The notes under the pieces are model-generated. The model was given only the letters and a program-made list of their open reading frames with translations. It ran no database searches and was not told the DNA's origin. A program made the translations under genes and the position numbers. 64,000 nt of DNA from Achromobacter pulmonis (GTDB lineage: Bacteria; Pseudomonadota; Gammaproteobacteria; Burkholderiales; Burkholderiaceae_B), in NCBI RefSeq assembly GCF_902859765.1, contig NZ_CADIJV010000008.1:108573-172572 (forward strand), read 5' to 3'. Positions 8,697-16,821 of this stretch are shown piece after piece. The first letter of the stretch is position 1; the number at the start of each line of letters is the position of its first letter.

Positions 8697-8745
8697 GAGG
8701 TATTCCATTTCTTCCCCCAAAGTCGGCTTTGTCAGCCTGGGCTGA
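8697..8745 (+). pseudogene. rimO: Orphaned native 5' end of rimO
   Basis: A GAGG ribosome-binding site (8697-8700) is followed after 6 nt by codons 8707-8742 reading (I/M)-SSPKVGFVSLG and then TGA at 8743. This is the expected Alcaligenaceae RimO N-terminus; the same residues PKVG(F)xSLGC recur in intact rimO at 15514-15543. The island insertion cut the gene here. The codon in the start position is now ATT, not ATG. That could be a post-insertion mutation or a native rare start. Confidence 0.8.
8716..8744 (+). repeat. Left attachment-like direct repeat (attL, native rimO codons)
   Basis: Encodes PKVGFVSLG plus two bases of the next Cys codon. It aligns without gaps to 15514-15542 with 23 of 29 bases identical. 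Five of the six differences are at third codon positions; the sixth changes Val to Ile. The longest shared run at the inner edge is GGCTG (8740-8744). CAGCC-TG-GGCTG at 8733-8744 forms a short dyad. Inferred crossover zone. Confidence 0.7.
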
Positions 8746-8978
8746 CCGTAGGCTAGCGAAAATATACTCATGGATATGGAGCGCAGTGGTCCGGGTTCGT
8801 CACGATCCTATGGGCAACGCGCCAGGAGCATCCTTCCGACGCTAGAAGCGGCACCCTTTGTTTAGTGTGGAAAACGGTACGCGCGTTTCGCAAATAGCCG
8901 GGAAGGATTCCCATCCCTATCATTCCTGTCGAGAGTTCGGACAAGAATGGCTTGTCTGCTCGAAACCAGGGAGAAATC

Positions 8979-9380
8979 GTGTCCTTTTTAGATCTAGTTG
9001 GCGATTTTGTAGAAACGACGTTCGAAGGTATCGGTACCGCGGTCGCTGGGGCGGCGGATGCTGTGATGCAAAATCCCGTTAAATCCATCGCTATCGGCGC
9101 TGTGACCGTGGCCAGCGGCGGGGCCGCCTTGGTCTTCGCCGGCCCTATCGCTGCGGCGGTGGGCACGACGGGCCTGTTGGGCGCGGCAAGCACGGGCACA
9201 AGCATCGCTACGCTGTCTGGCGCAGCGCTTACCAAAGCGTCGCTGGCGGCGTTGGGTGGCGGAGCCTTGGCTGCGGGAGGTGGCGGCGTGGCGGCAGGCT
9301 CCGCGGCGGTGGCTGTGGCTGGCGCCGCCCTTGGTGCGGGCGTTTCGGGTGGGGTCGCCGCGGTCACGCCTCAGGCTTGA
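8979..9380 (+). CDS. Small Gly/Ala-rich hydrophobic protein, first island gene
   Basis: 133 aa from GTG 8979, preceded by AGGGAG at good spacing; a TTG at 8952 is a weaker alternative. I do not recognise it. After a short acidic amphipathic start (SFLDLVGDFVETTFEGIGTA) nearly all of it is Gly, Ala, Val, Ser and Thr. It has repeated small-residue GxxxG-like spacing (VASGGAALVFAGPIAAAVG, LGGGALAAGGGGVAAGSAAV), suggesting glycine-zipper membrane helices. No cleavable signal peptide and almost no charged residues are seen. Its stop overlaps a TTG of the next reading frame (TTGA), so the two genes are probably one unit. A membrane-inserting partner or effector is a guess. Confidence 0.6.
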   Translation: MSFLDLVGDFVETTFEGIGTAVAGAADAVMQNPVKSIAIGAVTVASGGAALVFAGPIAAAVGTTGLLGAASTGTSIATLSGAALTKASLAALGGGALAAGGGGVAAGSAAVAVAGAALGAGVSGGVAAVTPQA

Positions 9381-9439
9381 ACACGGCTGGCGAAATCGAA
9401 CCGGGCTGCCTTTCGGGCGCCCGCTTTTCTGGAATAAAT

Positions 9440-10672
9440 ATGGCCCGCGTTTCCTCAGCCCAGGTCGCTGGGCTAGACCTCATCGACAAGCTGTTCTTCA
9501 ATCAGGCGCTGGTGTTCTGCTTGTTCACGGAAGAACTCTGCTGGCTAATGGATCTTCGCGAAGACCTTGATCGCGAATTGACGAACCGACGCATACACGG
9601 CGTCCAGCGACAGGTGGTCAGGCACGGCGTCCTATGCATGATGGAAGCAGCACTGTCCGAGGACCTGCAGCTTGTTGAACAGGCGTTCCCACACCTTTCG
9701 GAAATTCCTCGTCCATTCACGGACGAAGTGCACGAAAGAGTGCGACAGTTCAATTTGGATTTTTTCGAAGGCGCAGTACTTGCCGCGCTGCACGTTCTTT
9801 ACGATTGCGACAAGGAAGTGGTTATCGAAATCGCCAACACGCTCTTGAAAGGATACGAGAGCGCGCCAGTTATGGTGCGCTATCGCTTGGTGGAGCGCAT
9901 GTTCTCCTTCGAATTTCTCATGTCGCCCATAGACTGCTTTACCTGGCTGGCGAAGATGGGCGTGCTGCGTAGCGCCAAACATCCGGGGATTGCGCTAGAG
10001 GCCCGCTATCGCACCGAGTTTCTGCAGCGCCTTGCGCTCCTCTGCGTGTTGGACATGCAACGCGATAACATCTATCGCTTGATGCGACTAAGCCCATACG
10101 AAAGCTCGGGGCTAGTCGACAAAATAAAAGGTCTCACGCCTACCACAATCAAACTGCTACTTGAGCAAGAGTTCAAGGCCATGTCGGTCAATTGCCTGCC
10201 CGATCTCAAAGGAAGCTTTCCCTTCATAAGCCTGGATGATCTCGAAGACCCGAGGAAGGTCCAACGATTCTTCAGCAGCATGAACAAATATTCGACGAGG
10301 TTTCGGGTGTTTCGCGGTCCGTTGGCAAGTTGGGTGGGGCTGCTTTGCGGCGGGTGTGTGGAGGTTATGTACCGAGCACAGGAAACAAAGCCCTTGATCT
10401 ATGCTGATGCGTTCAATGAAGGCAGCCTCACTCAAACGATTTCAGATGGGATGCGCGCTCGCGGATTTGAGATTTCGGCGCGGACCGTCTATGAACGTCA
10501 TCGGGACTTCAAGGAGACAATTCTCTGGATCGTGTCGACCTATTACGCATTGGCCGTACGCGTCAACGTTGCGACCCCCCCTTACCTCGCGGACATCACG
10601 TATGAGGGGTTAGCGTGCGGCTTCGATCACGTTAAGCCGAGAGCGCGGCGCAGTGCAGAAGACCGTGCATGA
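9440..10672 (+). CDS. Unrecognised 410-aa island protein, second gene of a two-gene unit
   Basis: I do not recognise this family. Start taken at ATG 9440 (GGAA 6 nt upstream). A TTG at 9377 overlapping the preceding stop would add 21 residues and may reflect coupling. The protein looks largely alpha-helical, soluble and charged (DLREDLDRELTNRRIHGVQR; FNLDFFEGAVLAALHVLYDC). It has no Walker, TOPRIM, PD-(D/E)xK, HNH or TIR motif and no recombinase RHRY pattern. Near the C-terminus TISDGMRARGFEISARTVYE resembles a helix-turn-helix. Base composition is AT-richer than flanking chromosomal genes. Transfer with the neighbouring Gly/Ala-rich gene suggests the two act together. Confidence 0.65.
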   Translation: MARVSSAQVAGLDLIDKLFFNQALVFCLFTEELCWLMDLREDLDRELTNRRIHGVQRQVVRHGVLCMMEAALSEDLQLVEQAFPHLSEIPRPFTDEVHERVRQFNLDFFEGAVLAALHVLYDCDKEVVIEIANTLLKGYESAPVMVRYRLVERMFSFEFLMSPIDCFTWLAKMGVLRSAKHPGIALEARYRTEFLQRLALLCVLDMQRDNIYRLMRLSPYESSGLVDKIKGLTPTTIKLLLEQEFKAMSVNCLPDLKGSFPFISLDDLEDPRKVQRFFSSMNKYSTRFRVFRGPLASWVGLLCGGCVEVMYRAQETKPLIYADAFNEGSLTQTISDGMRARGFEISARTVYERHRDFKETILWIVSTYYALAVRVNVATPPYLADITYEGLACGFDHVKPRARRSAEDRA

Positions 10673-10859
10673 GCTATCGAGCGCAGATGGAGAAGAATGC
10701 AAGTGGTCCCACGTAAATCTGACCCAAACTCGGAATCCGCTTTGGCAACCTGCATGATTTTTAACAAACCGTGTGCAGACGCCTCGCGCGAGACTGCCCG
10801 ATAGTCGATAATGTGCGCTTCGGAAAATCAGTTTAATTGCGGTATCCATTGGAGACAGC

Positions 10860-12809
10860 ATGGCCGGCTTCAACCGATCTAAGCTAGTCCGCATCATGGT
10901 GCGGAATATTGGTTGTATTGGCAACGAAGGGGTTGAGATCGAGCTCGACAACGTGGTCTGCTTGGTTGGAAAAAATAATGCGGGCAAATCCACCATCCTT
11001 CGTGCATATGAGTTAGCCAAGGGCTCCGCCAGCTTCGATATTGCCAAAGATCGCTGTCAGTACGCCCCGAAGGATCAACCGTCTGAAGTGCTCCTTGAGG
11101 TGCACATCCCTGACGGGATCGGCAACGTGGATGCCAAGTGGAAAATGTCGAAGGACGGTCACCTGATCGTCAAGAGCCGGTGGCAGTGGGCTGCCCCAAG
11201 TTTCCTGAAGGTGCGGACTACCTGGGATCCAACGGGAGGGACTGATGGCGCGGGAGCGTGGGCAGACGACGGCAAAGCCGCGGGTGCCGATCCAGTTTTC
11301 AACTCTAGGTTACCCCGCCCGCTGCGCATTGGATCACTTGATGACGCGGCAAAAACTGAGGACATGCTGCTCACTTTGGCGCTGGGGCCATTGCTAGCGG
11401 GATTAGAGAAAGAGCGCATTGATCCTCAGTCCGATCTCTGCAAAGCGATTGCAGGCATATCCGAACACTTGAACATTCTTAGCGGTGTTCACGAAGATCA
11501 CTTCAATGTAATTGCCAGCCGTGTTGCAGCTGGCTTCAAGGGCGTTTTCCCCCGGCTGGACGTAAAGCTCACAGTAAGTGCCGCTCCGCTGGTCCCAAAG
11601 CTCGGCGAACTGATTAAAGGCGGCTCGAGCCTGACTGTCCGGGATGGAGCCGCCGAAACGGCGCTTGTTCAGCAGGGAACAGGCGCGCGGCGAGCGCTTT
11701 TTTGGTCCATGCTACAAGTTCACAACGAGCTATCACGCGATAGGGAAGTTCGACAGGAATATCGTAAACGACTGGAAAAGGACCTATCTGACGCCCAGAA
11801 GAAGGTCCCGAAAGCCAAGGAAGCAGAAAAGCAGGCTCTAGCAGACACTATTGCGTCGCTCAACGCTCAGCTTGAGGCGCATGACGAAGGGGCAGCCATT
11901 CCGGACAGTCCGGAAGACCCCGCTTTTCCTGGCTATCTGCTATTGATTGACGAACCGGAAAACGCGCTGCACCCAATGGCGGCGCGTGCGGCGCAGCGTC
12001 ACTTGTACCAACTGGCAGAAAGTCCAGATTGGCAAGTAATCATGACTACCCATTCGCCTCATTTCGTCAATCCCTTTGAGGATCACACAACCATCGTGCG
12101 ACTTGAGCGGGCAGCAGACGGCGACGCACCTCCCGTGGCCCCAAAGACTTATCGTTCTGATTGCATCCAGTTTGATGGCGACGACAAAGATCGCCTCCAA
12201 GCACTGCAGCACATTGATCCGAGCTTTTCCGAAGTGTTTTTTGGCTCGTACCCGATTCTGGTCGAAGGGGACACAGAGCATGCTGCGTTCATGTCGTCCA
12301 TTCTTGAACGCCAGCATGACCTGATAGACCGCGTTACGATCATCCGGGCGCGTGGCAAGGCGATTTTGGTACCTCTCATCAAAGTGCTGACGCACTTCAA
12401 AATTGATTTTGGGGTAGTCCACGACTCTGATTCCCCGTTTAAAAAGAACGGCCATAAGAATGGGATGTGGACTGAAAACGAGAAAATTCGCAATGCGATC
12501 GTCAACGCGCGGGGAGCAGGCCTGGCCGCTCGACATAGGATCAGCATTCCTGATTTCGAGCGCTTCTTAGGTGGGGAAGAGGAAGTCAAGGATAAGCCTC
12601 TGAACACGTACCTCGTCGTCTCAAAAGACGACGCCATCGCTCAACAGGTGCAGAAGTTGATAGAAGAGCTTCAGTCTTCGACGCAGCATGAGCCATTCAT
12701 TGAAAGCGAGCTCGGGACTGATGGCTATTTGTCTTGGCTCGGTAGCATCGTTCAGCACTGGGCTGCGCAGAACGGACTATCGGACGATGTGAGGTTCAGG
12801 GGGGCTTGA
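10860..12809 (+). CDS. OLD-family ATP-dependent endonuclease (AAA ATPase plus TOPRIM)
   Basis: 649 aa. ABC/SMC-type ATPase: Walker A VGKNNAGKST (36-45), signature-like QQGTGARR, Walker B LLLIDEPENALHP (Asp364, Glu365), and the H-loop TTHSP. A charged, coiled-coil-like insert (KRLEKDLSDAQKKVPKAKEA) lies between signature and Walker B. The C-terminal TOPRIM has ILVEGDTEH (Glu469) and VVHDSDSP (Asp522, Asp524). This matches OLD nucleases, which cut DNA and serve in phage exclusion. No UvrD-like GajB helicase or DUF4435 partner is adjacent, so it looks like a stand-alone class 1 OLD protein rather than Gabija or PARIS. GGAGA lies just before ATG 10860. The 187-bp gap upstream suggests its own promoter. 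Confidence 0.85.
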   Translation: MAGFNRSKLVRIMVRNIGCIGNEGVEIELDNVVCLVGKNNAGKSTILRAYELAKGSASFDIAKDRCQYAPKDQPSEVLLEVHIPDGIGNVDAKWKMSKDGHLIVKSRWQWAAPSFLKVRTTWDPTGGTDGAGAWADDGKAAGADPVFNSRLPRPLRIGSLDDAAKTEDMLLTLALGPLLAGLEKERIDPQSDLCKAIAGISEHLNILSGVHEDHFNVIASRVAAGFKGVFPRLDVKLTVSAAPLVPKLGELIKGGSSLTVRDGAAETALVQQGTGARRALFWSMLQVHNELSRDREVRQEYRKRLEKDLSDAQKKVPKAKEAEKQALADTIASLNAQLEAHDEGAAIPDSPEDPAFPGYLLLIDEPENALHPMAARAAQRHLYQLAESPDWQVIMTTHSPHFVNPFEDHTTIVRLERAADGDAPPVAPKTYRSDCIQFDGDDKDRLQALQHIDPSFSEVFFGSYPILVEGDTEHAAFMSSILERQHDLIDRVTIIRARGKAILVPLIKVLTHFKIDFGVVHDSDSPFKKNGHKNGMWTENEKIRNAIVNARGAGLAARHRISIPDFERFLGGEEEVKDKPLNTYLVVSKDDAIAQQVQKLIEELQSSTQHEPFIESELGTDGYLSWLGSIVQHWAAQNGLSDDVRFRGA

Positions 12810-12875
12810 AAGCATGAACGGGACCAACAGCTCACCCTCCTGTCGAAACTAGTGAAGTTGATCTTGTCTGCCGAA

Positions 12876-12892
12876 CTATCGAACGCCGATAG
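12876..12892. repeat. Short inverted repeat upstream of the R-M genes
   Basis: CTATCG-AACGC-CGATAG, 6-bp perfect arms with a 5-bp spacer, in the 206-bp gap before the methyltransferase gene. It could be an operator for the R-M pair; no controller (C-protein) gene is visible. Low certainty. Confidence 0.35.
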
Positions 12893-12951
12893 CGCAGTGT
12901 CGCGCCCGTCGCGTGTTGCGCCTTTCAGCCGCCCCGGGTCAGACTCAGAGT

Positions 12952-12972
12952 GGCCCGCTCCAGTGGGCCTTT
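12952..12972 (+). terminator. Possible terminator after the OLD gene
   Basis: Seven-pair stem (GGCCCGC/GTGGGCC with one G-T pair) and a TCCA loop, followed by only TTT. Lies between the OLD gene and the methyltransferase gene. The weak U tract makes it uncertain. Confidence 0.35.
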
Positions 12973-13015
12973 CCCCGGGGATATGCGAAAATTCGCTATA
13001 GATTCAGAGGGCTTT

Positions 13016-14065
13016 ATGGCAAGAAATACCAAGATCCGTATCGCACGGCCGGATGACCGGACACTTCGGCTTGGCTCCGTATCGCTGTTTCATGGCGATG
13101 CGCTTGAGGCATACGACGAGTGGCTGGCGCCGACGGTCATCATCGCAGACGGCCCGTATGGACTGGGAAAATTTCCCGGTGAGCCTGTGACGCCCGACGG
13201 GCTGGCCGAATGGTACGCGCCTCATGCCGCTGCTTGGGCTAAGTGCGCGCAGCCATTCACGACGTTGTGGTTTTGGAATAGCGAAATAGGATGGGCAAAG
13301 GCGCATCCCGCCCTAGAGCTCAACGGTTGGCAATACGAAGAAACCGTAATCTGGGACAAGGGGATCGCCCACATTGCCGGAAACGTGAATTCCCGCACGA
13401 TCCGAGGCTTACCGGTGGTCACTGAGGTCGCGGTCCGATATACGCGAAAAGCGACCTTGCCGACCCTGACGGGGCATCAACTTCCTTTCAAGGAATGGCT
13501 CCGCTATGAGTGGCAGCGCTCAGGGCTTCCACTATCGCAAAGCAACGAGGCCTGCGGTGTGAAGAACGCCGCGACGCGTAAGTACCTCACACAGTGCCAT
13601 CTCTGGTACTTCCCGCCAGGGGAGGCCGTGGTGGCCATGGCCAATTGGTGCACTCGTTACGGTTCCAAGACCACAAGGCCCTATTTTTCAATCGACGGGA
13701 TACATCCGCCGACGGCCGAAGCGTGGGATAAGATGCGTGCAAAATGGACGCATGTGCACGCGCTTACAAACGTTTGGCATGACCCACCAGTGCACGGCGC
13801 AGAACGTGTGAAGAAGCCGCATGGAACTGGCTATCTTCATGCGAACCAAAAACCGATCGCTCTAATGGAGCGTCAAATAATCGCCTCTAGTGATCCTAAC
13901 GATGTGGTGTGGGAGCCGTTTGGAGGATTGATGTCGGCATCGGTAGCGGCTTTACGGTTGGGTCGGCGGGCACACGCCGCCGAGTTCAACGAGGAGTTTT
14001 TCGAAGCTGCACGTCTTCGCATCGAGGGCGAGCTCCTGCAACCAAAGTTGCAGGTGGCCGCGTGA
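13016..14065 (+). CDS. Site-specific DNA methyltransferase of a type II-like R-M pair
   Basis: 349 aa from ATG 13016, with AGAGG 5 nt upstream. ATGs at 12983 and upstream GTG/TTG codons lack this. The catalytic motif IV region reads IIADGPYG (residues 42-49) and precedes the SAM-binding motif I-like VWEPFGGLMSASVAALRLGR (298-317). That order belongs to beta-class amino-methyltransferases (N6-adenine or N4-cytosine). The usual (D/N/S)PP(Y/F) is here DGPY. Its stop overlaps the nuclease start by GTGA. Its role is probably host protection against the partner nuclease. The recognition sequence is not readable from sequence. Confidence 0.85.
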   Translation: MARNTKIRIARPDDRTLRLGSVSLFHGDALEAYDEWLAPTVIIADGPYGLGKFPGEPVTPDGLAEWYAPHAAAWAKCAQPFTTLWFWNSEIGWAKAHPALELNGWQYEETVIWDKGIAHIAGNVNSRTIRGLPVVTEVAVRYTRKATLPTLTGHQLPFKEWLRYEWQRSGLPLSQSNEACGVKNAATRKYLTQCHLWYFPPGEAVVAMANWCTRYGSKTTRPYFSIDGIHPPTAEAWDKMRAKWTHVHALTNVWHDPPVHGAERVKKPHGTGYLHANQKPIALMERQIIASSDPNDVVWEPFGGLMSASVAALRLGRRAHAAEFNEEFFEAARLRIEGELLQPKLQVAA

Positions 14066-14982
14066 CAATTTCTCCCCAGCGTACCCGAGGTCCCGATCCG
14101 TCGTGGAAACATAGGGACCTATATGACAGGGTGGTTGACGCCCTTCATGCCCTTCCGGCCCGTTTTAGGACATCGCTCCGCATAGCGGGAATCAGTGCGA
14201 CCGATCTATTCACGCTGAACACGCCATTAGGCGCGGCGATTGAGTCGTCCGTGGTCGAGAATCTCAACGACCTCAGGGAACTTTGGGACCCGGGGAACGA
14301 ATACGACGTTTATTCGTTTGTTCGCCAAGCGCAGGTCTTTCCCGACGTTCGACTTCAGTCGAGCGCACCGGGTGTGCCAGAAGATGAACGCGTCTTGATG
14401 GGCATTGAACTCAAGGGCTGGTTCATTCTGTCCAAGGAAGGAGAGCCCTCGTTTCGATACAAGGCATCGCCGATGGTTTGCATGCCGCAGGACCTTTTGG
14501 TCGTTTATCCATGGGGGCTTGATGAGGTGATTTCGGGCGCTCCGAAGTTGCTTCGACCTTTTATCGAGGAGGCGCGGTACGCAGCGGAACATCGGAATCA
14601 TTATTGGCAAGTGGTCCGAGGTCAAACCGGACCAGATGCCGAGGTTGCGCTGGCTACCGAACTGGCTCCTTACCCTGCGAAAGGTCAAAAGTTCAACGAC
14701 GAGGCGGTAAAAGACAAGGGAAAGAACTTTGGTCGGGTTGCCCGCGGAGGCCTAATGACTGCCTTTATCGCAGAGCTGATGCAACAACAAATTTCCGGAA
14801 TTCCGGCCATTCATTGGCAGAACTTTTTGAGAATTTTTTCCGAGGGCGCCGAGGCCAACGCTATAGAACGCAAGTTGGCCACGATGCGAACGGATGCTGA
14901 GGCAGCCGGCCTGACAGCAAATGGGTTGGAAGCGTTCGATCGGATTCAGGACGGATTACGAGACCTTCTTTCTAAGCTCTAG
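14062..14982 (+). CDS. Probable restriction endonuclease, PD-(D/E)xK type
   Basis: 306 aa from GTG 14062, overlapping the methyltransferase stop (GTGA). A core nuclease motif is visible: PD at residues 94-95 (VFPDVRL) and ExK at 116-118 (GIELKGW), 21 residues apart. A hydrophobic strand MVCMPQDLLVVYPW follows. This fits the PD-(D/E)xK fold. Overlap with a DNA methyltransferase gene makes a type II restriction enzyme the best reading. The motif is seen; the family is inferred, and I cannot name an isoschizomer with confidence. It should cut foreign DNA in the cytoplasm. Confidence 0.8.
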   Translation: MTISPQRTRGPDPSWKHRDLYDRVVDALHALPARFRTSLRIAGISATDLFTLNTPLGAAIESSVVENLNDLRELWDPGNEYDVYSFVRQAQVFPDVRLQSSAPGVPEDERVLMGIELKGWFILSKEGEPSFRYKASPMVCMPQDLLVVYPWGLDEVISGAPKLLRPFIEEARYAAEHRNHYWQVVRGQTGPDAEVALATELAPYPAKGQKFNDEAVKDKGKNFGRVARGGLMTAFIAELMQQQISGIPAIHWQNFLRIFSEGAEANAIERKLATMRTDAEAAGLTANGLEAFDRIQDGLRDLLSKL

Positions 14983-15126
14983 CTTCGGGTTGCACCGAAT
15001 ACCAAATTTTCGGACGGGATATTGATCGGCTCCCTGACTATAGGAGCGCACATTAGCGTATGTAGCTCGAGCCCCCGGGCTCAGCCCGATTACTAACGGC
15101 ACTCCTTTTCGCTGGTCATTTTCAAC

Positions 15127-15366
15127 ATGAACAAGCACTTAAAGAAGGGCATTAGCCAACGCGTTCGAGAGTGGTACCTAGGCAACTACGTGCCTCCACC
15201 TCCGAATGATCCAGACAGTCATGTGGTCTTCGTTAGCCCAGGGCATTACGAGCAGCCGCCGCTTGCAAAGGCAGTTAAGCTGCTCGGTGCCTTTTGGCTG
15301 AAGCACTGGCAGTGGATCACCGGCACTATCTTGGCTGTGATCGGCATCGTTGTATCCATGAAGTGA
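15127..15366 (+). CDS. Small tail-anchored hypothetical protein
   Basis: 79 aa, unrecognised. The N-terminal half is basic and Pro-rich (MNKHLKKGISQRVREWYLGN, then VPPPPNDPDSHVVF). The C-terminus is a single membrane helix (WITGTILAVIGIVVSM) ending in Lys, so it is predicted to be tail-anchored with a cytoplasmic N-terminus. No Shine-Dalgarno is evident before ATG 15127. Last island gene before the substitute rimO start. Possibly an accessory or immunity-like membrane protein; no function can be assigned. Confidence 0.55.
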   Translation: MNKHLKKGISQRVREWYLGNYVPPPPNDPDSHVVFVSPGHYEQPPLAKAVKLLGAFWLKHWQWITGTILAVIGIVVSMK

Positions 15367-15492
15367 GGCAGGCAAGCGCGAGGGCCGCTCGTGGAGAACC
15401 GATCGAATTTTGCAGTCTATGTGTGGCGTAGGGCGGAGGTTGCCCCATCGAAGCCCGGCGCCAAACCCCTCGGATAAAATTCAGTTATTTCA

Positions 15493-16821
15493 ATGACATA
15501 CAAAGTTAAACCACCGAAAGTGGGATTTATCAGTCTTGGCTGTCCCAAAGCCCTGGTCGACTCCGAACGCATCCTGACCCAACTGCGCACCGAAGGGTAT
15601 CAAGTCACGCCCGAGTACAACGACGCCGACGTCGTGGTGGTGAACACCTGTGGTTTCATCGACAGCGCCAAGGCCGAGTCGCTGGAAGCCATCGGCGAGG
15701 CGCTGGCCGAGAATGGCAAGGTCATCGTCACCGGCTGCATGGGCGTCGAGGAATCGGTGATCCGCAACGTGCACCCCAGCGTGCTGGCCGTGACCGGCCC
15801 GCAGCAGTACGAGGAAGTGGTGCGCGCCGTGCACAATGCCGCCCCGCCCAAGAAGGACCACAACCCCTACCTGGACCTGGTGCCGCCGCAGGGCATCAAG
15901 CTGACCCCGCGCCACTACGCCTACCTGAAGATCTCGGAAGGCTGCAATCATCGCTGCAGCTTCTGCATCATCCCATCGATGCGCGGCGACCTGGTCAGCC
16001 GCCCGGTGGGCGACGTGCTGAGCGAGGCCGAACGCCTGGTCAAGGCCGGCGTCAAGGAACTGCTGGTGATCTCGCAGGACACCAGCGCCTACGGCGTGGA
16101 CGTCAAGTACCGCAGCGGCTTCTGGAACGGCCGCCCGGTGCGCACCCGCATGACCGAGCTCTGTACGGCCTTGTCCGAAATGGGCGTCTGGACGCGCCTG
16201 CACTACGTCTACCCGTACCCGCACGTGGACGAAGTGATTCCGCTGATGGCCGAGGGCAAGATCCTGCCCTACCTGGACATCCCGTTCCAGCATGCCAGCC
16301 CGCGCATCCTCAAGGCCATGAAGCGCCCGGCGTTCGAGGACAAGACGCTGGCGCGCATCAAGAAATGGCGCGAGATCTGCCCCGACCTGACCATCCGCTC
16401 GACCTTCATCGTCGGCTTCCCCGGCGAGACCGAGGAAGACTTCCAGTACCTGCTGGACTGGATGCAGGAAGCCCAGCTCGACCGCGTCGGCTGCTTCCAG
16501 TATTCGCCGGTGGAAGGCGCGCCCGCCAACCTGCTCGACAACCCGGTGCCGGACGAGGTCAAGCAGGAACGCTGGGAACGCTTCATGGAAATGCAGCAGT
16601 CGATTTCGACCGCCCGCCTGGCGCGGAAAGTCGGCCGCGACATCGACGTGCTGATCGACGAAGTGGATGAAGACGGCGCCGTCGGCCGCAGCAGCGGCGA
16701 TGCGCCGGAAATCGACGGCTGCGTCTACGTCAGCTCGGAGCGCCCGCTCAAGGCCGGCGACCTGGTGCGCGCCCGCGTCACCGACGCCGACGAATACGAC
16801 CTCTGGGCCGAAACGGTCTGA
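15493..16821 (+). CDS. rimO: Ribosomal protein S12 methylthiotransferase RimO
   Basis: 442-aa radical-SAM methylthiotransferase that modifies Asp88 of ribosomal protein S12. Domains: UPF0004 ([27 protein letters not shown]), radical SAM ([15 protein letters not shown], the CxxxCxxC cluster), and C-terminal TRAM (about 375-442). The first 17 codons or so are island-derived ([17 protein letters not shown]); the native start is stranded at 8707. The new ATG 15493 has no clear Shine-Dalgarno, and an AT-rich ATAAAAT lies only 13 nt upstream, so initiation may be leaderless. No strong terminator separates it from the island genes. Confidence 0.96.
15514..15542 (+). repeat. Right attachment-like direct repeat (attR, island-borne rimO codons)
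   Basis: Island copy of the rimO start codons, encoding PKVGFISLG plus TG of the Cys codon. It uses AT-richer codons than the native copy at 8716-8744. Immediately after it the native GC-rich rimO body resumes (CCCAAAGCCCTGGTCGAC from 15544). Inferred as the right junction. Confidence 0.7.

What the first reader, a model, noticed from the sequence alone, without database searches (positions are those of the whole stretch)
8697..15545. A defence-type island inserted into the 5' end of rimO brings its own recoded rimO start
Two copies of the first rimO codons exist. The native copy at 8716-8744 is cut off by TGA. An island-borne copy at 15514-15542 is fused in frame to the native gene body. They match at 23 of 29 bases, and five of six differences are synonymous third-position changes. 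This is the signature of an element that enters the 5' end of an essential-type gene and repairs it, as SXT does with prfC. I know of no described element family using rimO this way. The cargo is all nuclease, methyltransferase and unknown genes.
Basis: partly seen in the sequence, partly recalled or inferred. Interest (0 to 1): 0.85.

Follow-up and report, generated by a model that had tools for sequence, protein, structure and literature searches.

The report
Integrase-less defence island in rimO
A 6.8-kb block of probable anti-phage genes sits at the exact spot in the rimO gene that some temperate phages use, and supplies a replacement start for the gene it cut, yet no recombinase was found in it, so it may depend on phage enzymes to move.

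Summary
In the window (an Achromobacter genome) rimO is cut at its Cys codon and a 6.8-kb island supplies a new in-frame start. The five genus members with the most similar rimO have the uninterrupted gene. 'No described family uses rimO this way' is out of date: Burkholderia phage JC1 integrates in the rimO 5' end with a large serine recombinase (LSR) and also supplies a new start (PMC9144972). The island's left end is a JC1-type attP half-site: TAWAC lies exactly 18 nt after the inferred TG crossover in 15 of 20 distinct left junctions, mostly from Burkholderiales. What looks new is a class of islands here without a JC1-type LSR, carrying defence, metal-resistance or other genes. LSR-bearing sequences have GTATA 18 nt before the crossover (15 of 15); the islands without one have a native-like rimO half instead (10 of 10), so their right junction resembles the empty target. 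I propose helper-dependent, hybrid-att islands integrated in trans. Four of 268 family genomes show the window's type of start. Trans action is inferred, not shown; stacking rests on one imperfect case.

The parts
8707..8744 (+). Orphaned native rimO 5' end (start codon now ATT), ending in the inferred TG crossover 8743-8744 (= left half B of the target site)
   Evidence: equal to G011, G012 and G020 except ATG to ATT
8745..8767 (+). Island left end = attP-type half-site P': ACCGTAGGCTAGCGAAAA-TATAC (TATAC exactly 18 nt after TG)
   Evidence: same spacing in JC1 attP and in 15 of 20 distinct left junctions
8979..9380 (+). Small Gly/Ala-rich protein (about 133 aa; ORF opens at 8952), partial PDC-M09A match that may reflect its simple composition
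9440..10672 (+). Unknown protein (about 410 aa; ORF opens at 9377), homologues at 23-27% identity on 11 plasmids
10860..12809 (+). OLD-like ATPase-TOPRIM nuclease (649 aa), probably anti-phage
   Evidence: PADLOC Old E 1e-62; OLD-like TOPRIM PF20469
13016..14065 (+). N6/N4 DNA methyltransferase
   Evidence: PF01555, phrog_67
14062..14982 (+). Putative type II restriction enzyme partner (306 aa), overlapping the methyltransferase
   Evidence: weak REase_II match; a Cupriavidus plasmid hit covers the methyltransferase and part of this gene
15127..15366 (+). Small 79-aa protein; the C-terminal half recurs (82%) in the G030 rimO island
15414..15434 (+). Conserved right-end motif AGTCTATGTGTGGCGTAGGGC of the 'type 1' islands
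15493..15540 (+). Island-borne rimO start ([16 protein letters not shown]); 15518-15540 is the native-like left half (no GTATA)
15541..15542 (+). Right crossover TG (inferred); from here the rimO body is native
15541..16821 (+). Native rimO body, now in frame with the island's start

Best explanation
The 6.8-kb block (8745-15542) is a recombinase-less genomic island inserted at the rimO attachment site of JC1-type large serine recombinases (LSRs). Crossover was most likely at the TG of the Cys codon of VGFVSLGC. The island's circular form would carry a hybrid site: a phage-type right half (P', at its left end) joined to a native-like rimO 5' end (its right end). Insertion therefore leaves a stub plus P' on the left. 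On the right it gives a fused, in-frame rimO whose junction again resembles the empty target (attB). I infer that an LSR from a co-resident phage or LSR-bearing element acted in trans, much as a hybrid-att transducing phage needs a helper. Shown: reciprocal breakpoints in the same five bases, P' half-site, native-like right half, no JC1-type LSR in the island and no PF07508 match in the held genome, and the same kind of right end in three genera. Inferred: trans-mobilisation, a circular intermediate, anti-phage function of the cargo, working RimO, and that the target-like right junction can be used again.
For: Uninterrupted site in 5 of 5 genus members with the most similar rimO; switches at GGCTG on both sides. 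A scan of genome contigs for a rimO 5' end followed by NCCGTA gave 16 stretches, 14 with Burkholderiales titles. TAWAC at +18 nt in 15 of 20 distinct left junctions against 2 of 1,180 other positions; the scan did not specify these bases. JC1 attP has the same layout. LSRs related to that of JC1 (69.6% for L153) lie beside rimO in 7 loci (Pfam domains seen in the three that were scanned, one of them truncated). GTATA 18 nt before TG in 15 of 15 LSR-bearing sequences and in 0 of 10 islands without one. All 10 right halves of these islands are nearer to a native stub half (2-6 differences) than to any of 9 LSR-element halves (6-12). The MTYK-type start matches in full in 4 of 268 family genomes, in three genera; their cargo differs and none has a JC1-type LSR. 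PF07508 gave no match in G000.
Against: No circle, excision or trans-recombination was observed. LSRs normally do not join an attL-type site to attB without an accessory factor (recalled), so the reaction may need an unusual or two-step route. 5 of 20 left junctions lack an exact TAWAC. For L154 and L155 the right half is only slightly nearer to native (4 against 6 and 3 against 6). The LSR+ and LSR- sets are partly related, so the p-values are optimistic. Direct support for stacking is weak: only G095 holds an inner type-1 right-end remnant, and its junction is not a clean TG junction; the G019 stub is an ordinary native start. In Paraburkholderia domus and Caballeronia the island contains dus, which lies directly upstream of the rimO stub in relatives, and the G024 island carries about 360 bases of the normal rimO-upstream region of other Achromobacter; both also fit a history of homologous recombination. 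The held genome is a draft in 91 contigs.
Confidence: 0.62

Rival explanations
1. Decayed autonomous element: an LSR-bearing phage or island integrated normally; later its right end (LSR plus phage half-site) was lost and replaced through homologous recombination with rimO-upstream DNA from a relative, leaving P' and cargo.
For: In the 7 genome loci with an LSR it lies at the right end, just where it is missing here. dus, upstream of the rimO stub in L095, L097 and L103, lies inside two of the islands, and the right part of the G024 island is the normal rimO-upstream region of other Achromobacter. G027 keeps a 39-residue LSR fragment and a GTGTA start, so decay does happen.
Against: In the window the exchange points on both sides fall in the same GGCTG with native sequence right outside; a homologous tract should run on into rimO. 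The same kind of right end sits on four islands with different cargo in three genera, which would need repeated replacement by an MTYK donor; no full MTYK match other than these four is listed in the family.
Confidence: 0.23
2. The islands belong to a different, undetected recombinase whose phage-side half happens to look like rimO (KVGFISLGC).
For: Type-1 right halves (AAGTG...) are alike in four hosts, as a recognised site would be. The unknown 410-aa protein has no family match.
Against: The left half-site is JC1-type with exact spacing. The right halves of the islands without an LSR differ among themselves and each is nearest to a native half. No recombinase family in the window's six ORFs.
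Confidence: 0.1
3. Ordinary chromosomal rearrangement or assembly artefact with no element involved.
For: The genome is a draft (91 contigs).
Against: The site lies inside one 172-kb contig; the same junction type recurs in other assemblies across Burkholderiales.
Confidence: 0.02

Closest known systems
Burkholderia phage JC1 and related LSR-bearing prophages/islands at rimO
   Same: Insertion in the rimO 5' end, in-frame start supplied by the element, same P' half-site spacing (PMC9144972)
   Different: JC1-type elements carry the LSR next to rimO and a GTATA phage half; the window island has neither
SCC/pseudo-SCC at rlmH (CcrAB serine recombinases)
   Same: Cargo islands at one RNA-modification gene, serine-recombinase sites, members without recombinase (recalled; ECC passages in PMC6222049)
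   Different: Different gene and recombinase; SCC enters the 3' region of rlmH, here the 5' end of rimO is replaced
SXT/R391 ICEs in prfC
   Same: 5'-end insertion with a replacement start (recalled)
   Different: Tyrosine integrase and conjugation genes (recalled); neither found in the window's ORFs
dusA-associated islands and prophages
   Same: 5'-end insertion in an RNA-modification gene, gene integrity proposed to be kept (PMC4482086, start of abstract and one passage)
   Different: Carry their own integrase; rimO is mentioned there only as another target (Polaromonas CJ2)
Lambda dgal-type hybrid-att transducing phages
   Same: A B.P' hybrid att site that needs a helper (recalled)
   Different: Tyrosine integrase, laboratory products of aberrant excision (recalled); here a recurrent natural class

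Membership tests
JC1-type rimO elements (autonomous) | Insertion in the rimO 5' end at the VGFVSLGC Cys codon | tested here: met
JC1-type rimO elements (autonomous) | P' half-site with TAWAC 18 nt after TG | tested here: met
JC1-type rimO elements (autonomous) | P half-site with GTATA 18 nt before TG at the rimO side | tested here: not met
   AAGTG, native-like
JC1-type rimO elements (autonomous) | Own large serine recombinase | tested here: not met
   no PF07508 match in the held genome
JC1-type rimO elements (autonomous) | rimO reading frame restored | tested here: met
   442-aa RimO with UPF0004, radical SAM and TRAM domains; activity not testable
Cis-mobilisable or satellite-type islands (mobilised in trans) | Recombination sites at both ends but no recombinase, mobilised by a helper | tested here: inconclusive
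   left site and lack of recombinase shown; right end is target-like; mobilisation not testable
SXT/R391 ICE | Tyrosine integrase plus conjugation genes | tested here: not met
   no such family in the window's six ORFs
SCC | rlmH 3' site with ccr recombinases | tested here: not met
   site is the rimO 5' end, no PF07508 match in the genome

The most novel reading that the evidence does not exclude
The rimO locus of Burkholderiales hosts a natural class of helper-dependent, hybrid-att islands. Each carries a native-like rimO 5' end on one side and a phage LSR half-site on the other, so every insertion repairs rimO and recreates the target. Anti-phage genes can thus collect at the very site used by temperate phages, moved by those phages' own recombinase.
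Probability: 0.35. Interest if true: 0.8.

Novelty: new variant of a known kind. Interest (0 to 1): 0.58.

Why it matters
If the reading is right, a conserved gene acts as a self-renewing docking site. Phages target it with a serine recombinase, and small islands with no recombinase of their own use the same enzyme and restore the gene and the site each time. That would explain how defence genes collect at a phage attachment site without visible mobility genes, and it gives a short sequence signature (rimO stub, NCCGTA, TAWAC at +18) to find such islands in other genomes. It also raises a testable question of biochemistry: can a serine integrase use a half-phage, half-bacterial site as a donor?

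Tried and rejected
The stub motif alone as a marker was dropped: a short pattern with one mismatch hit all 43 genus genomes at about the rate of its reversed control, and the one exact hit off the rimO locus among the listed rows (G010, L064) is, by inspection of the printed sequence, not a rimO site. The right-end motif as a phage packaging or arm site: no exact match in the viral contigs. A phage with the type-1 half-site: no match in the viral contigs. A native source of the MTYK start in the order: 19 of 399 genomes matched a loose pattern; of the six loci I read (the window's own and five others) only the window's own is rimO; the rest were not read. Stacking in G019, which I first inferred (notes), was withdrawn: about 340 bases just upstream of its rimO stub match the ordinary rimO-upstream region of many other genus members, so its stub is a native start and one insertion is enough. 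Long lysE-rimO gaps in several genus members looked on inspection like ordinary chromosomal genes and were not counted as islands. PMC10872708 and PMC8865926 were false text hits.

Rows left out of counts: the Roseateles MAG (L110/L156: stub and rimO on different contigs, native-like right half, no LSR hit), Endozoicomonas (L104/L159: GTATT and a 41% LSR fragment), the Opitutaceae MAG (L101, contig end, probable contaminant) and G027 (L049: LSR fragment, GTGTA) are not in the 15 against 10 comparison; L101, L104 and L110 are among the 20 left junctions. G030 has the locus on two contigs; one was used. Of 23 viral loci the 7 with sequence beyond the LSR were read; the other 16 start at the LSR. 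The 15 LSR-bearing sequences are JC1, these 7 and 7 genome loci, not all independent. For the islands other than the window's only chosen ORFs were scanned with family models, so recombinases of other kinds are not excluded there; all ten were searched with the LSR. One search used 13 native and 9 LSR-element halves.

Full report
What is there. The window lies in an Achromobacter genome: G000 is of the same genus as G019 and G024, whose rimO contigs have the same lengths as contigs titled Achromobacter pulmonis ANB-1 and Achromobacter sp. Root83. Its rimO gene is split. The native first codons end at 8743-8745 in TGA, and the gene body resumes at 15541-15542 behind a second start codon at 15493. 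The five genus members with the most similar rimO carry lysE and rimO side by side with the start MSSPKVGFVSLGC (5 of 5). Left of the crossover the window differs from G011, G012 and G020 at one base in 118, the one that turns the old ATG into ATT; right of it there is no mismatch to G011 or G012 for 56 bases. Both breakpoints thus fall in the same five bases, GGCTG. The insert has 55.7% G+C. It holds an OLD-like nuclease, a methyltransferase with a possible restriction partner, and three unknown ORFs. No recombinase or integrase family was found in its six ORFs, and ARAGORN found no tRNA in the window.

Known part. Passages in the literature show that rimO is already described as a target. 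[quoted passage not shown]). PMC4482086 names a Polaromonas rimO case in one passage, PMC10322971 an island/ICE in A. ferrooxidans (passages) and PMC9658991 a Variovorax prophage with a serine integrase at RimO (table passage). I found no account of recombinase-less islands at rimO in searches, of whose papers I read only the passages cited.

A wider family. A scan of genome contigs with a pattern for a rimO 5' end followed by NCCGTA gave 16 stretches, 14 with Burkholderiales titles. With the loci found by other routes this makes 20 distinct left junctions. TAWAC lies exactly 18 nt after the TG in 15 of 20, against 2 of 1,180 other positions tested. JC1 attP has the same layout. That the crossover is at TG is inferred, from differences on either side of it between the two junctions (for example L154 and the window). 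In 7 genome loci a protein related to the L153 LSR (53-76% identity for the other six; one truncated, one split by frame) lies immediately upstream of rimO on the opposite strand; L153 is 69.6% identical to the JC1 recombinase. The islands without an LSR run from about 0.9 kb (G024) and 1.3 kb (P. domus, a dus gene) to about 11.8 kb (G030, Lamassu LmuA/LmuB). In Bordetella petrii a stub and the LSR-rimO end lie about 91 kb apart on one contig.

The dichotomy. LSR-bearing sequences have GTATA exactly 18 nt before TG at the rimO side: 15 of 15 (JC1, 7 genome loci, 7 viral loci). The ten islands without a JC1-type LSR have none, and each right half is closer to a native rimO stub half than to the LSR-element halves compared, narrowly so for L154 and L155. 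Fisher tests give 5e-5 for 7 of 7 against 0 of 10 and 3e-7 for 15 of 15 against 0 of 10, optimistic because relatives are included. The left junction keeps the phage half; the right junction looks like the empty target. Reading the ends together, the inserted circle would have had a hybrid site.

The window's own kind. Among the listed matches, four of 268 family genomes show the MTYK...KVGFISLGC start in full (G000, G019, G086, G095; three genera), and the same four have the right-end motif within two mismatches just upstream of rimO; two other genomes matched the motif away from rimO. Cargo differs: OLD plus restriction genes here; chromate transporter, ChrB and nickel transporter in G019; the PDC-M28 pair and an Abi_C protein in G086; a NERD-helicase and a near copy of the Abi_C region in G095. 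G086 and G095 share 992 bp at 94%. G095 also holds an inner, decayed type-1 right end, so it is a composite, though the inner junction is not clean. The G019 stub is an ordinary native start. PF07508 gave no match in G000, G024, G030, G086 and G095; G019 has one distant member elsewhere (24% over part) and B. petrii one beside rimO.

Mechanism. Reciprocal breakpoints with a phage half-site argue for site-specific recombination by a JC1-type LSR. Since none was found in the island or the held genome, I infer action in trans. The native-like right half would make the right junction target-like again. The main rival is decay of a normal element with later replacement of its right end. It explains the missing LSR, the dus cases and the G024 island, whose right part is the normal rimO-upstream region of other Achromobacter, but less well the clean exchange points and the repeated right end with changing cargo.

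Verdict. The recombinase-less hybrid-end class is, as far as my searches reach, undescribed: a new variant of a known kind.

Noticed in passing
8952-10672: The Gly/Ala-rich small gene and the 410-aa unknown gene may be a pair: two Pseudomonas plasmids match both close together, but in a Klebsiella plasmid the second gene follows transposase genes instead. Homologues of the second lie on 11 plasmids.
   Followed up: partly
8707-8709: The start codon of the orphaned rimO stub has mutated from ATG to ATT.
   Followed up: partly
L148:17258-18539 and L154: Islands in Paraburkholderia domus and Caballeronia contain a dus gene that lies directly upstream of the rimO stub in L095, L097 and L103.
   Followed up: partly
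L157, L158: Phage-like ORFs (by eye) upstream of rimO in Pelomonas and Delftia with LSRs only 53-55% identical to the Paraburkholderia one, so several LSR lineages share this site.
   Followed up: no
L041:17404-18287: In Achromobacter Root83 a 0.9-kb insert carries an antitoxin-like helix-turn-helix gene (by eye) and the longer rimO start used by many other Achromobacter, so rimO N-termini in this genus may themselves be mobile.
   Followed up: partly
L104, L159: An Endozoicomonas genome (a gammaproteobacterium) shows a similar rimO stub and, on another contig, an LSR fragment beside rimO.
   Followed up: no
L049:7269-7385: G027 keeps a 39-residue fragment of a JC1-type LSR and a GTGTA-type rimO start, perhaps a relic of an LSR element in the genus.
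   Followed up: no
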